Source: Thermococcus sp.
GTDB lineage: Archaea; Methanobacteriota_B; Thermococci; Thermococcales; Thermococcaceae
Assembly (NCBI GenBank): GCA_027075325.1
Contig: JALTBN010000027.1
Location: 272,397 to 336,396 of the forward strand
DNA length: 64,000 nt
Reading direction: 5' to 3'
The notes under the pieces are model-generated. The model did not search any database. It saw nothing but the letters and a program-made list of their open reading frames with translations, and was not told the origin of the DNA. How positions within the stretch are numbered: position 1 is the stretch's first letter; every line of letters begins with the position of its first letter. Positions 29,667 to 33,890 of the stretch are shown piece by piece. The position numbers and the translations under genes were made by a program.

Positions 29667-29753
29667 TGGCGCCGGGACGGGGATTTGAACCCCGGTGTCC
29701 AAGCGGACACGGGCTCTCAAGGCCCGCGCCATCCCAGGCTAGGCGATCCCGGC
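29667..29753 (-). tRNA. tRNA-Ser (TGA anticodon)
   Basis: Class II, 87 nt. The acceptor stem is GCCGGGA/TCCCGGC, the anticodon stem CGGGC/GCCCG encloses CTTGAGA (anticodon TGA), and it has a long variable arm. The discriminator is G and CCA is encoded. Its first 15 nt are also the last five codons of the methyltransferase gene upstream. Confidence 0.97.
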
Positions 29754-30368: not shown

Positions 30369-30527
30369 TCACACAAATCCAATGTCAGCCAGATCGCTTT
30401 TCCGTCCGAGAGACCCCGATTCCCACAATGTGCCATCTGCAATGAACCCGAAATAGGTAACCGTCGGGAACTCCCTCTCCGTAATCATCGTACTTTTCTG
30501 CCCAGAGAAGAGATCACTCTCAGTCAC
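30369..30527 (-). pseudogene. possible gene fragment, 52 codons
   Basis: A short frame from GTG 30527 to TGA 30369 encodes a product ending SLGRKSDLADIGFV with protein-like composition (EREFPTVTYFGFIADGTLW) but no convincing ribosome site. It is visibly GC-richer than the membrane-protein genes just upstream. It overlaps the end of the 55-aa gene by 8 bp. It may be the 3' remnant of a chromosomal gene cut by insertion of the AT-rich cluster, or a third small cluster gene; I do not recognise the family. Confidence 0.35.
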
Positions 30528-30687
30528 TATTCTTAGAAGTTACACTATAGATACAGTTCACTACAGACACACCAAGCAATGATAAGCTGACGTAAAATAA
30601 AATCCTGTTGGACTCCAAAATAGCTCGTGAGAAGTATAAAAACGATGACAGGTGATACTGCCTGAATGAGGACACTCTTTTATCCAT
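30520..30687 (-). CDS. small membrane protein, 55 aa, archaeocin cluster
   Basis: ATG 30687 follows GGTGAGAATT, 5 bp after the upstream gene's stop. The product has a basic N terminus (MDKRVSSFRQYHL) and a hydrophobic helix (ILFYVSLSLLGVSVVNCIYSV). Together with the 84-aa membrane protein it follows the secreted Cys-rich precursor in one transcript, the usual place for immunity or export functions. That role is inferred from context only. Confidence 0.55.
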   Translation of the reverse strand: MDKRVSSFRQYHLSSFLYFSRAILESNRILFYVSLSLLGVSVVNCIYSVTSKNSD

Positions 30688-30692
30688 AATTC

Positions 30693-30947
30693 TCACCACT
30701 GCGAAATTCCCATGGCGATGAACCAACCGAGCGCAGCTCCAAGTATGGATATCACCCCCACTTCGAGACTCCTTTTAACAGATCTACCCCCAACCTTTTG
30801 AAGCAATGCCGTAAAGAGCATAATGTAACCAATTGTCAGTAGTAGCCCTAGTAAGGATGTGTTCTTAATATATGCAACCATACTCCAAGCAAATAGTCCA
30901 TAAAGGAAACTACTCCAAAAAATAAGAGAAAAAATGTGCAAATTCAT
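30693..30947 (-). CDS. small three-helix membrane protein, archaeocin cluster
   Basis: An 84-aa protein with three hydrophobic segments (about residues 5-26, 31-50 and 62-81) and a basic linker (GGRSVKRSLE) between the second and third. ATG 30947 lies 11 bp after the Cys-rich precursor gene with GGTGAT between them, so they are co-transcribed. No family is recognised. By analogy with bacteriocin operons it could be an immunity protein or part of an exporter; this is inference. Confidence 0.65.
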   Translation of the reverse strand: MNLHIFSLIFWSSFLYGLFAWSMVAYIKNTSLLGLLLTIGYIMLFTALLQKVGGRSVKRSLEVGVISILGAALGWFIAMGISQW

Positions 30948-30958
30948 TTAGCATCACC

Positions 30959-31882
30959 TCAACAAGCTCCGATTTTTTCACATACAATATATGAGGCAGT
31001 TCCACAGCTCACTCCCGAGCTAAGAATTTCACCGAGTGTTGAACATATTACTGCGCAAATAGCTGCTCCCCAGCCTTCACTAAGCCCAGTGCAAGTTGCC
31101 ACACACAGTAAATAGTGGTAGGCAACAGCACATAGTGTTCCAACTGCTATACTGCATAACCAGCAACCCCAACCATCCAAACTAATTGTTAGTCCTATTG
31201 CTTTCTGTTGGTTGTATTCTGGAAGTTTGAGTCTCACCAGGTGCGATAAGTGCCTTAACTCAAATGCACTCCTGCCCCAAATCCAAGCGGTCTCATCATG
31301 CCTCCTAAGATTCATAAGAACTCTGTTAAGAGTCCAGTAATACTGCGAGAGAGTCAAATTGTCAGCAGTAATAATCGTGTCACCAACGGGAACAACCCTG
31401 TCCTCATCATTCGGAGCAATGTTCATCCCAGTTAGATAAGCCCTGTACTCGCCAGTCTTAGGGTCAGTAAATATCCTCGTGACGAGAGTAAAGTTGTACT
31501 GGCTCTTCTCGGCGCGATAAACGAGCGCGTACATTGTGTAATTGAACGTGCTGTTGTAGAAGTTCAGTCTAAAGAACAGCAACTGCTCGCGCTTTTCACT
31601 CATGTTGTAAAGCGTGACTATTGAAATGTTGACCTTGGGAGTAACATTGGACTTGTGAAGCGGGCAACCTTTAGTTAGATTTGTGAAGTTCACGACTTTG
31701 TTCACCCATGTAACGTTCATCTGGAGCCTACCCCTGTCGTCATACCAGGCAATAACGGCCCTGCGGAAGGTAATGCTGGTGTTGTTCGTGCTCATCGCCA
31801 TGGCTTGAGGAGCCGTAATCAACTGCAGACTCAACACCATGGCAACGAGGAAAACCCCGAAAGCAGTCTTCCTCCAATTCAT
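30959..31882 (-). CDS. secreted precursor with halocin C8-like 10-Cys C-terminal domain (putative archaeocin)
   Basis: A 307-aa protein. Residues 1-29 are a Sec-type signal peptide (basic MNWRKT, hydrophobic core, APQAMA end). Residues 30-230 form an extracellular domain rich in N-glycosylation sequons (about a dozen Asn-X-Ser/Thr). Residues 231-307 are a hydrophobic Gly/Ala/Cys-rich domain with ten cysteines at 240, 243, 251, 260, 264, 276, 280, 293, 301 and 307; the last residue is Cys. From memory, mature halocin C8 also has ten cysteines in about 76 residues, starts with a CxxC pair, ends with Cys, and is cut from a precursor whose N-terminal part gives immunity. ATG 31882 follows AGGTGG. 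Two membrane-protein genes follow. Bacteriocin activity is an inference. Confidence 0.75.
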   Translation of the reverse strand: MNWRKTAFGVFLVAMVLSLQLITAPQAMAMSTNNTSITFRRAVIAWYDDRGRLQMNVTWVNKVVNFTNLTKGCPLHKSNVTPKVNISIVTLYNMSEKREQLLFFRLNFYNSTFNYTMYALVYRAEKSQYNFTLVTRIFTDPKTGEYRAYLTGMNIAPNDEDRVVPVGDTIITADNLTLSQYYWTLNRVLMNLRRHDETAWIWGRSAFELRHLSHLVRLKLPEYNQQKAIGLTISLDGWGCWLCSIAVGTLCAVAYHYLLCVATCTGLSEGWGAAICAVICSTLGEILSSGVSCGTASYIVCEKIGAC

Positions 31883-31894
31883 GGCTACCACCTG

Positions 31895-31936
31895 GACCAG
31901 TTGGTCACTCTTTGTAACACATGAAACTATATAAAT
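31895..31936 (-). promoter_or_regulatory. strong promoter and dyad at the archaeocin cluster
   Basis: On the minus strand 31936-31926 reads ATTTATATAGT behind purine-rich AAAAAGAAAG, a strong BRE/TATA that predicts a start near 31905. The inverted repeat GACCA-N2-TGGTC at 31895-31906 covers that start, which would suit a repressor. Confidence 0.55.
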
Positions 31937-32089: not shown

Positions 32090-32166
32090 GGGTGTGGGGG
32101 TGTTAGCCCCCCAGCAACCTTTGCTATGCAAAGCTTGGCCAAGAAACTTTTCTGACGAAAAGTTTC
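32090..32166 (-). repeat. G-rich flank plus two GCAAAG-type stem-loops
   Basis: The plus strand shows TGGGGG-tgttag-CCCCCCA, then AACCTTTGC / GCAAAGCTT (32116-32136, loop TAT), then GAAACTTTTC / GAAAAGTTTC (32143-32166, loop TGAC). The reverse complement of 32090-32133 aligns closely with 50858-50894, so these are two copies of one longer element in opposite orientation. Confidence 0.65.
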
Positions 32167-32268
32167 ATCAAAAAGCTTAAACCGTTCAGATGGGGAGTTG
32201 ATGTAGTACACGCTAAAAGCTGATGGTTTTGGAAATGGGTTTGTGCTAAAATCTTAACAGTTTTACAT

Positions 32269-32319: not shown

Positions 32320-32420
32320 CCTAAACAGGCTTATCCAATAAACAAACCCCCCAGTTAGGCCCACAATTAAAGTGTGCGCGAAGCCCTTCCACGGTTCTCA
32401 GCGATAAAAAAAATTTTGAT

Positions 32421-32443
32421 GAAACTTTGCTTGGCAAAGTTTC
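32421..32443. repeat. GCAAAG-type stem-loop at the cbf5 stop codon
   Basis: GAAACTTTGC / GCAAAGTTTC, a perfect 10-bp stem with loop TTG on the plus strand; its last base is the last base of the cbf5 TAG on the opposite strand. On the cbf5 transcript the stem is followed by ATCAAAATTTTTTTT, so it may also work as a terminator. Confidence 0.65.
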
Positions 32444-33457: not shown

Positions 33458-33697
33458 TTACGGGTCTTCCAGCGCTTTGATAAACTCATCTTTTCCAATC
33501 TCAGCAAGTTTTAGAATGCCCATTAACGTTCCGGGCTTGAGTTCTCGATGGAGTGGAACCACAGTACCGATTTTCCTACCTCCAACGTGTTTAACAAGAA
33601 CCACATGGCTACTCCTTTGACGGGATACCTCAAAGCCGAACTCTGAGACAAGCACTTTAACCACATCTTCACCCAAGAGCCTTGGCAATCTGGACAT
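33458..33697 (-). CDS. hicA: HicA-family mRNA interferase toxin
   Basis: A 79-aa protein of normal HicA length. LPRLLGEDVVKVLVSEFGFE and the following RQRSSHVVLVKH with the catalytic-type His, then VVPLHRELKPGTLMGILK, match the dsRBD-like HicA fold that cleaves mRNA. Its ATG lies 29 bp inside the end of hicB in another frame. The cbf5 start is only 10 bp after its stop, so toxin and the essential cbf5 may share a transcript. Confidence 0.9.
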   Translation of the reverse strand: MSRLPRLLGEDVVKVLVSEFGFEVSRQRSSHVVLVKHVGGRKIGTVVPLHRELKPGTLMGILKLAEIGKDEFIKALEDP

Positions 33698-33890
33698 TGA
33701 AATCGCCCACGAAGGTTATTCTATCAAGTTCTTCCTTCAATTCCGGAAACTCCTCAAGGTAGAGCTCCACTGCCCCCCTCAAGTTCTCAATGGCCTCCTC
33801 TATGGTCTCCCCCTGTGTTGTCACCCCGGTGAAGACCTCCTTTATTACATAAATGCCCTCTTCTTCCCAGATGACCGCGTGGAGGTTCAT
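33669..33890 (-). CDS. hicB: HicB-family antitoxin
   Basis: A 73-aa protein with the HicB partial RNase H-like fold: HAVIWEEEGIYVIKEVFTGVTTQGETIEEAIENLRGAVELYLEE. It lacks an added DNA-binding domain, so any autoregulation may need another factor or the complex. It precedes hicA (antitoxin first, as in hicBA operons). ATG 33890 follows GGGTGAGAGC. Tandem 15-bp repeats abut its promoter. Confidence 0.88.
   Translation of the reverse strand: MNLHAVIWEEEGIYVIKEVFTGVTTQGETIEEAIENLRGAVELYLEEFPELKEELDRITFVGDFNVQIAKALG

What the first reader, a model, noticed from the sequence alone, without database searches (positions are those of the whole stretch)
30520..31936. Putative archaeocin operon with a halocin C8-like ten-cysteine domain in a hyperthermophile
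Seen: a secreted 307-aa precursor with a Sec signal, a sequon-rich extracellular domain and a 77-residue hydrophobic C-terminal domain with ten cysteines ending in Cys; then two overlapping or tightly spaced small membrane-protein genes; a strong promoter with a dyad at its start site; AT-rich DNA unlike the surrounding ribosomal genes. Known: halocin C8 (haloarchaea) is released from a larger precursor and, as I recall it, has ten cysteines with a similar CxxC start and terminal Cys; the precursor's N-terminal part confers immunity. Inferred: this is a heat-stable peptide antibiotic system, with the two membrane proteins giving immunity or export.
Basis: partly seen in the sequence, partly recalled or inferred. 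Interest (0 to 1): 0.88.

Follow-up and report, generated by a model that had tools for sequence, protein, structure and literature searches.

The report
Swappable peptide toxins in hyperthermophilic archaea
A heat-loving archaeon carries a secreted protein whose cysteine-rich tail resembles a known archaeal antibiotic, and across its relatives the same protein carries at least nine unrelated tails, each followed by its own membrane gene, which looks like an interchangeable set of weapons and matching shields.

Summary
The precursor gene is real (31882-30959, minus strand, 307 aa: signal peptide, sequon-rich domain, hydrophobic ten-cysteine tail ending in Cys). Its tail is a remote halocin-C8-like domain: it covers the whole NCBIfam TIGR04449 model but scores 23.6 bits, just under the cut-off of 24. 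Sibling tails on the same carrier reach 36-48 bits.

The larger finding: the N-terminal 235 residues are a shared carrier, found in 29 of 94 Thermococcaceae genomes and fused to at least nine mutually unalignable cysteine-rich tails (6-20 Cys, even in 43 of 44). Carriers 92% identical bear unrelated tails; tails 98% identical sit on carriers 52% identical. Each tail class or subclass is followed by its own membrane-protein family; no family is shared between classes. Several genomes keep such partner genes without a precursor, some at the same truB-methyltransferase hotspot.

I read this as a polymorphic archaeocin system: secreted carrier, exchangeable disulfide-rich peptide, dedicated membrane immunity. 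Killing, cleavage and immunity are inferred, not shown.

The parts
30959..31882 (-). Precursor gene, 307 aa: secreted carrier plus C-terminal cysteine-rich peptide
   Evidence: ORF and translation; relatives in 29 of 94 Thermococcaceae genomes
31796..31882 (-). Predicted signal peptide, about residues 1-29 (no twin arginine)
   Evidence: Read from the sequence; no signal-peptide program was run
31223..31795 (-). Carrier domain, about residues 30-220: sequon-rich, predicted mostly beta strands and then two helices
   Evidence: Alignment of 40 relatives; sequon counts; AlphaFold2 model, mean pLDDT 61.8
31175..31222 (-). Conserved junction PEYNQQKAIGLTISLD (residues 221-236), where homology between precursors of different class ends; candidate processing region
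30962..31174 (-). Halocin-C8-like tail, residues 237-307, ten Cys, predicted four helices
   Evidence: TIGR04449 full-length match just under cut-off; sibling-model hit E 4.6e-6; model pLDDT 77
30693..30947 (-). 84-aa membrane protein, candidate immunity protein
   Evidence: 15 nt downstream; relatives in four other genomes beside partner genes of other tail classes
31928..31935 (-). TATA-like box TTTATATA
   Evidence: Conserved upstream of many relatives
31894..31907 (-). Dyad TGACCAACTGGTCC at the expected transcription start; candidate operator
   Evidence: Conserved upstream of precursors of several tail classes
31888..31892 (-). Ribosome-binding site GGTGG
   Evidence: Read from the sequence; conserved
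30520..30726 (-).
   Evidence: No convincing relative in 94 genomes; contains a terminator-like hairpin

Best explanation
This is one allele of a polymorphic archaeocin system of Thermococcaceae. The first gene makes a secreted, probably glycosylated carrier (about 235 residues) with a hydrophobic, disulfide-rich peptide at its C-terminus. The peptide is released or exposed at the conserved junction and acts on the membranes of related archaea that lack the matching protein. The gene just downstream makes a small membrane protein that protects the producer. New weapons arrive by recombination that swaps the tail together with its immunity gene onto the resident carrier, and old immunity genes are kept as orphans. 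Shown by sequence: the modular structure, cassette exchange, linkage of tail to membrane gene, orphan partner genes, selection on the proteins. Inferred: secretion, glycosylation, cleavage, disulfides, killing, immunity and the membrane target.
For: Tail matches TIGR04449 over its full length just under the cut-off, siblings above it. One carrier bears at least nine unalignable Cys-rich tails, Cys count even in 43 of 44. Carriers 91.7% identical with unrelated tails, tails 98.1% identical on carriers 51.7% identical; DNA identity breaks at the junction and in same-class pairs continues through the partner gene; synonymous divergence differs strongly between carrier and tail of one gene, dN/dS of tails 0-0.26. 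The downstream membrane-protein family follows the tail class, with no family linked to two classes and 93 of 119 same-class pairs matching against a shuffled maximum of 34. Partner genes occur without precursors, also in a genome with no carrier at all. Sequons sit in the carrier, not in the tails.
Against: No activity, cleavage or disulfide data. The window's own tail misses the TIGR04449 cut-off by 0.4 bits even when excised. Eight of the nine tail families have no known relative, and the partner families match no Pfam family. The 84-aa partner is known next to a precursor only in this genome; its relatives are orphans, so its pairing with this tail rests on analogy with the other classes. 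No protease or dedicated exporter was found at the locus. The precursor lies in an assembly with 5.7% estimated contamination, although its contig is long.
Confidence: 0.78

Rival explanations
1. Variable surface recognition system: the tail stays on the carrier and pairs with its cognate membrane protein for self/non-self or mating recognition, without toxicity, as was also proposed for VARTIG modules of the same archaea.
For: Modular variability and tight tail-to-membrane-gene linkage fit; VARTIG shows that Thermococcales have variable surface modules whose function is open (PMC8416519).
Against: Partner genes kept without a precursor and similarity of one tail class to a known peptide antibiotic fit immunity better; hydrophobic tails with many Cys and little charge look like membrane-active peptides.
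Confidence: 0.12
2. Halocin C8 mode: a single gene does both jobs, with the N-terminal carrier acting as the immunity protein and the downstream membrane gene serving export or something else.
For: Halocin C8 precursor is reported to give both peptide and immunity (cited in PMC8628083 and PMC12893001), and the window tail is C8-like.
Against: Nearly identical carriers serve unrelated tails, so specificity is unlikely to lie in the carrier; the gene that changes with the tail is the membrane gene, and it also occurs without a carrier.
Confidence: 0.05
3. Non-antagonistic Cys-rich secreted protein: the tail binds lipid or metal, or anchors an uncleaved surface protein.
For: Tail is hydrophobic and predicted helical; the only PDB sequence hint is a saposin-like lipid-binding domain at E 0.74.
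Against: A housekeeping binder or anchor would not be replaced by at least nine unrelated Cys-rich families together with the next gene.
Confidence: 0.05

Closest known systems
Halocin C8 / NCBIfam TIGR04449 halocin_C8_dom
   Same: C-terminal ten-Cys hydrophobic domain with CxxC first and Cys last, at the end of a larger secreted precursor; full-length model match
   Different: Window tail is 0.4 bits under the cut-off; carrier is unlike the halocin C8 precursor model NF040679 (5.9 bits against 200) and shared by unrelated tails; a separate membrane gene, not the precursor, tracks the tail; no twin-arginine signal seen
Polymorphic toxin systems (for example CDI or Rhs type)
   Same: Conserved N-terminal trafficking part, exchangeable C-terminal effector, specific partner gene downstream, truncated cassettes and orphan partner genes
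   Different: Effectors are small Cys-rich peptides, not enzymes; the carrier is about 235 residues without repeats; partners are membrane proteins throughout
VARTIG modules of Thermococcales (PMC8416519)
   Same: Same archaea; variable C-terminal region by recombination; followed by membrane-protein genes that track the variable part
   Different: VARTIG is a large immunoglobulin-domain protein; this is a 307-aa precursor with no Ig-family hit and Cys-rich tails, one class of them antibiotic-like
Bacteriocins with a dedicated membrane immunity protein (class II type, from general knowledge)
   Same: Small hydrophobic peptide with a small membrane immunity protein encoded just downstream; orphan immunity genes
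   Different: Leader is a folded, sequon-rich 235-residue domain reused for unrelated peptides, not a short double-glycine leader; no dedicated transporter seen

Membership tests
Halocin C8-like domain (TIGR04449) | Match to the family model at or above the curated 24 bits | tested here: inconclusive
   19.4 bits in whole protein, 23.6 bits on excised tail, full model length, E 7.6e-5; sibling tails 36.8 to 48.3 bits
Halocin C8-like domain (TIGR04449) | Ten Cys with CxxC start and terminal Cys | tested here: met
   Translation; Cys frame aligned with sibling tails, seven invariant Cys columns; the halocin C8 pattern itself is from memory
Halocin C8 (the characterised peptide and its precursor) | Precursor matches the halocin C8 precursor-like model NF040679 | tested here: not met
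   5.9 bits against a cut-off of 200
Halocin C8 (the characterised peptide and its precursor) | Immunity given by the precursor's own N-terminal part | tested here: inconclusive
   Argued against: the same carrier serves unrelated tails while a downstream gene tracks the tail; needs an experiment
Halocin C8 (the characterised peptide and its precursor) | Released peptide that kills related archaea | not testable with these tools
   No activity data
Polymorphic toxin system | Conserved N-terminal trafficking part with exchangeable C-terminal effector | tested here: met
Polymorphic toxin system | Specific immunity gene immediately downstream | tested here: inconclusive
   The linkage is shown: family follows tail class, none shared between classes. 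That the gene gives immunity is not shown
Polymorphic toxin system | Orphan immunity genes and truncated effector cassettes | tested here: met
   Partner-only islands and 5'-truncated tail cassettes
Polymorphic toxin system | Recognised toxin domain such as a nuclease, deaminase or protease in the effector | tested here: not met
   No such Pfam or NCBIfam match in any tail class
VARTIG | Large Ig-domain protein with hypervariable C-terminal Ig domain | tested here: not met
   307 aa, no Ig-family hit

The most novel reading that the evidence does not exclude
Hyperthermophilic Thermococcaceae run an arms race with a reloadable archaeocin: one secreted glycosylated carrier that recombination loads with at least nine unrelated disulfide-rich peptide toxins, each travelling with its own membrane immunity gene, with immunity-only islands at a chromosomal hotspot. 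Toxin carriage and immunity would be separate, unlike halocin C8, making a peptide-based polymorphic toxin system.
Probability: 0.7. Interest if true: 0.82.

Novelty: new variant of a known kind. Interest (0 to 1): 0.72.

Why it matters
In the held library I found no characterised peptide antibiotic from Thermococcales and no archaeocin with exchangeable tails. If the reading is right, it gives a catalogue of candidate disulfide-rich, heat-stable antimicrobial peptides with matched protection genes, a testable model of strain-level competition at hydrothermal vents, and a bridge between archaeocins and polymorphic toxins. Genetics exists for laboratory Thermococcus strains (general knowledge), so the immunity claim can be tested directly.

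Tried and rejected
Second small ORF (30726-30520) as a gene: rejected, no convincing relatives. Virus-borne carrier: no relative in viral contigs. Carrier outside Thermococcaceae: none in 115 genomes of the phylum. Structural relatives of the carrier: none in PDB by profile or fold. Structural relatives of the tail: no significant fold match in PDB or viral models; the only sequence hint is the saposin-like domain of surfactant protein B at E 0.74, too weak to use. Known families for the partner membrane proteins: none. Bacterial-type promoter scan: uninformative for archaea. Dyad specificity: searched in five genomes with up to two mismatches, it hit the precursor promoter in G017 and G070 and one of the two in G000 (the second precursor), plus three scattered sites; the reversed control pattern gave three hits, so the dyad is not shown to be specific. 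Signal, N-glycosylation and cleavage were read from sequence only. Makarova et al. 2019 (mBio 00715-19), the key earlier survey of halocin C8-like proteins, is not held, so I could not check whether it lists Thermococcales members.

Full report
What is there. On the minus strand of the window a 307-aa precursor (31882-30959) lies between truB/cbf5 (33507-32443) and a conserved methyltransferase gene (30326-29739), in a cluster of ribosomal protein genes. It has an N-terminal hydrophobic signal, 12 N-glycosylation sequons in the first part and none in the tail, and a hydrophobic tail with ten cysteines that begins CxxC and ends in Cys. An 84-aa membrane-protein gene (30947-30693) starts 15 nt after its last codon. 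The region is AT-rich. A TATA-like box and a dyad TGACCA-N2-TGGTC(A) recur upstream of most relatives.

The halocin C8 claim. NCBIfam TIGR04449 aligns over its full length with residues 240-307: 19.4 bits in the whole protein, 23.6 bits (E 7.6e-5) on the excised tail, cut-off 24. Tails of sibling precursors match at 36.8 bits as an excised protein and up to 48.3 bits in the genome search. A model of those siblings alone finds the window tail at E 4.6e-6 and no other tail class below 0.05. The C8-like tails share seven invariant Cys columns. AlphaFold2 gives a four-helix tail at mean pLDDT 77. So the tail is a remote halocin-C8-like domain. The precursor as a whole is not the halocin C8 equivalog (NF040679 5.9 bits against 200).

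The larger pattern. The carrier occurs in 29 of 94 Thermococcaceae genomes, often in several copies, and in no other family among 115 genomes of the phylum. Forty-seven precursor ORFs with an identifiable junction were compared, some of them truncated. They share about 235 residues ending in a motif close to PEYNQxKAxGxxxxMD. After it come tails that fall into at least nine mutually unalignable families once weakly related ones are merged. The tails have 6, 8, 10, 12, 16 or 20 cysteines, even in 43 of 44. The carrier of the window is 91.7% identical to one with an unrelated 12-Cys tail and 88% identical to two others of unrelated classes. Conversely two tails 98.1% identical sit on carriers 51.7% identical. 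Sliding DNA identity drops at the junction between classes; between same-class loci it extends through the downstream membrane gene, and in some pairs ends soon after it. Within one gene, synonymous divergence of carrier and tail differs about eight-fold and sixteen-fold in two pairs, while dN/dS is 0.06-0.16 for carriers and 0-0.26 for tails where it can be computed. This is cassette exchange of selected, functional protein modules.

The partner gene. For 44 precursors the first membrane-protein ORF downstream belongs to a family that depends on the tail: 12 of 12 for the 16-Cys class, 5 of 5 for the second 12-Cys class, 4 of 4 for the 20-Cys class (one with a shortened tail), 4 of 4 for the second 10-Cys class, and separate families even for subclasses of the C8-like tails. 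The 8-Cys class has two partner genes in a row; the automatic count there picked different ORFs of the same pair. No family is linked to two classes. Ninety-three of 119 same-class pairs share the family, against a shuffled mean of 11.8 and maximum of 34. Sequences are related by descent, so the shuffle is not a strict probability. Carrier and tail similarity are only loosely coupled (nearest carrier has the same tail class in 16 of 36), while the partner follows the tail.

Orphan partners. Relatives of the window's 84-aa gene are found clearly in four other genomes. In three of them they stand beside both partners of the 8-Cys class; in the fourth they follow a partner of the 16-Cys class and precede relatives of two C8-subclass partners (the last two by eye). 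At the truB-methyltransferase site some genomes have truB close to the methyltransferase, some a precursor plus partner, and some partner genes only, including G066, in which no carrier was found. Truncated precursors and 5'-truncated tail cassettes are also present. Remnants and partner-only islands are what toxin-immunity systems leave behind.

How it most likely works. The carrier is secreted and glycosylated; the tail folds with disulfides, is freed or presented at the junction, and inserts in target membranes; the membrane partner protects the producer. Secretion, glycosylation, cleavage, disulfides, killing and immunity are inferences. Release of a C-terminal active part is reported for halocin C8 and HalH4 (PMC12893001). 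The halocin C8 scheme, in which the precursor's N-terminal part gives immunity, fits poorly because one carrier serves unrelated tails.

What is known. VARTIG modules of the same archaea (PMC8416519) are a different, Ig-based variable system. From memory, Makarova et al. 2019 enlarged the halocin C8 family across archaea; that paper was not held, so the C8-like tails may be listed there. I found no held paper describing the shared carrier with exchangeable tails and matched membrane genes. I rate it a new variant of a known kind: it works like a polymorphic toxin system with an archaeocin-like effector, and it is not formally a member of either family.

Noticed in passing
L094 952-1734, L095 940-1731, L096 2283-1501, L098 2265-1501: A second carrier type (255-264 aa, motif like VQELRGPxAY) with a C8-like tail; in L094-L096 it lies next to a methylthioadenosine phosphorylase-like gene. 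Small membrane-protein ORFs follow in L094-L096.
   Followed up: partly
L002 1492-2577 (G000:C60:62360-63259): A second precursor in the same genome, 62% identical in the carrier, with an unrelated 16-Cys tail and its own 272-aa partner.
   Followed up: yes
33458-33697 and 33669-33890 (-): Two small overlapping ORFs that look like a HicA/HicB toxin-antitoxin pair just upstream of truB; judged by eye.
   Followed up: no
30369-30527 (-): 52-aa ORF sharing a 17-residue stretch (12 identical) with a membrane ORF at another locus of this system (L053); perhaps a decayed orphan partner gene.
   Followed up: partly
32131-32178 and 32414-32428: Inverted repeats in AT-rich, apparently gene-free DNA between the precursor promoter and truB.
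   Followed up: no
29667-29753 (-): tRNA-Ser(TGA) overlapping the 3' end of the methyltransferase ORF by 15 nt.
   Followed up: no
31894-31907 (-) and same place in relatives: A dyad TGACCA-N2-TGGTCA at the expected transcription start of precursors of several tail classes suggests one shared regulator; specificity not shown.
   Followed up: partly
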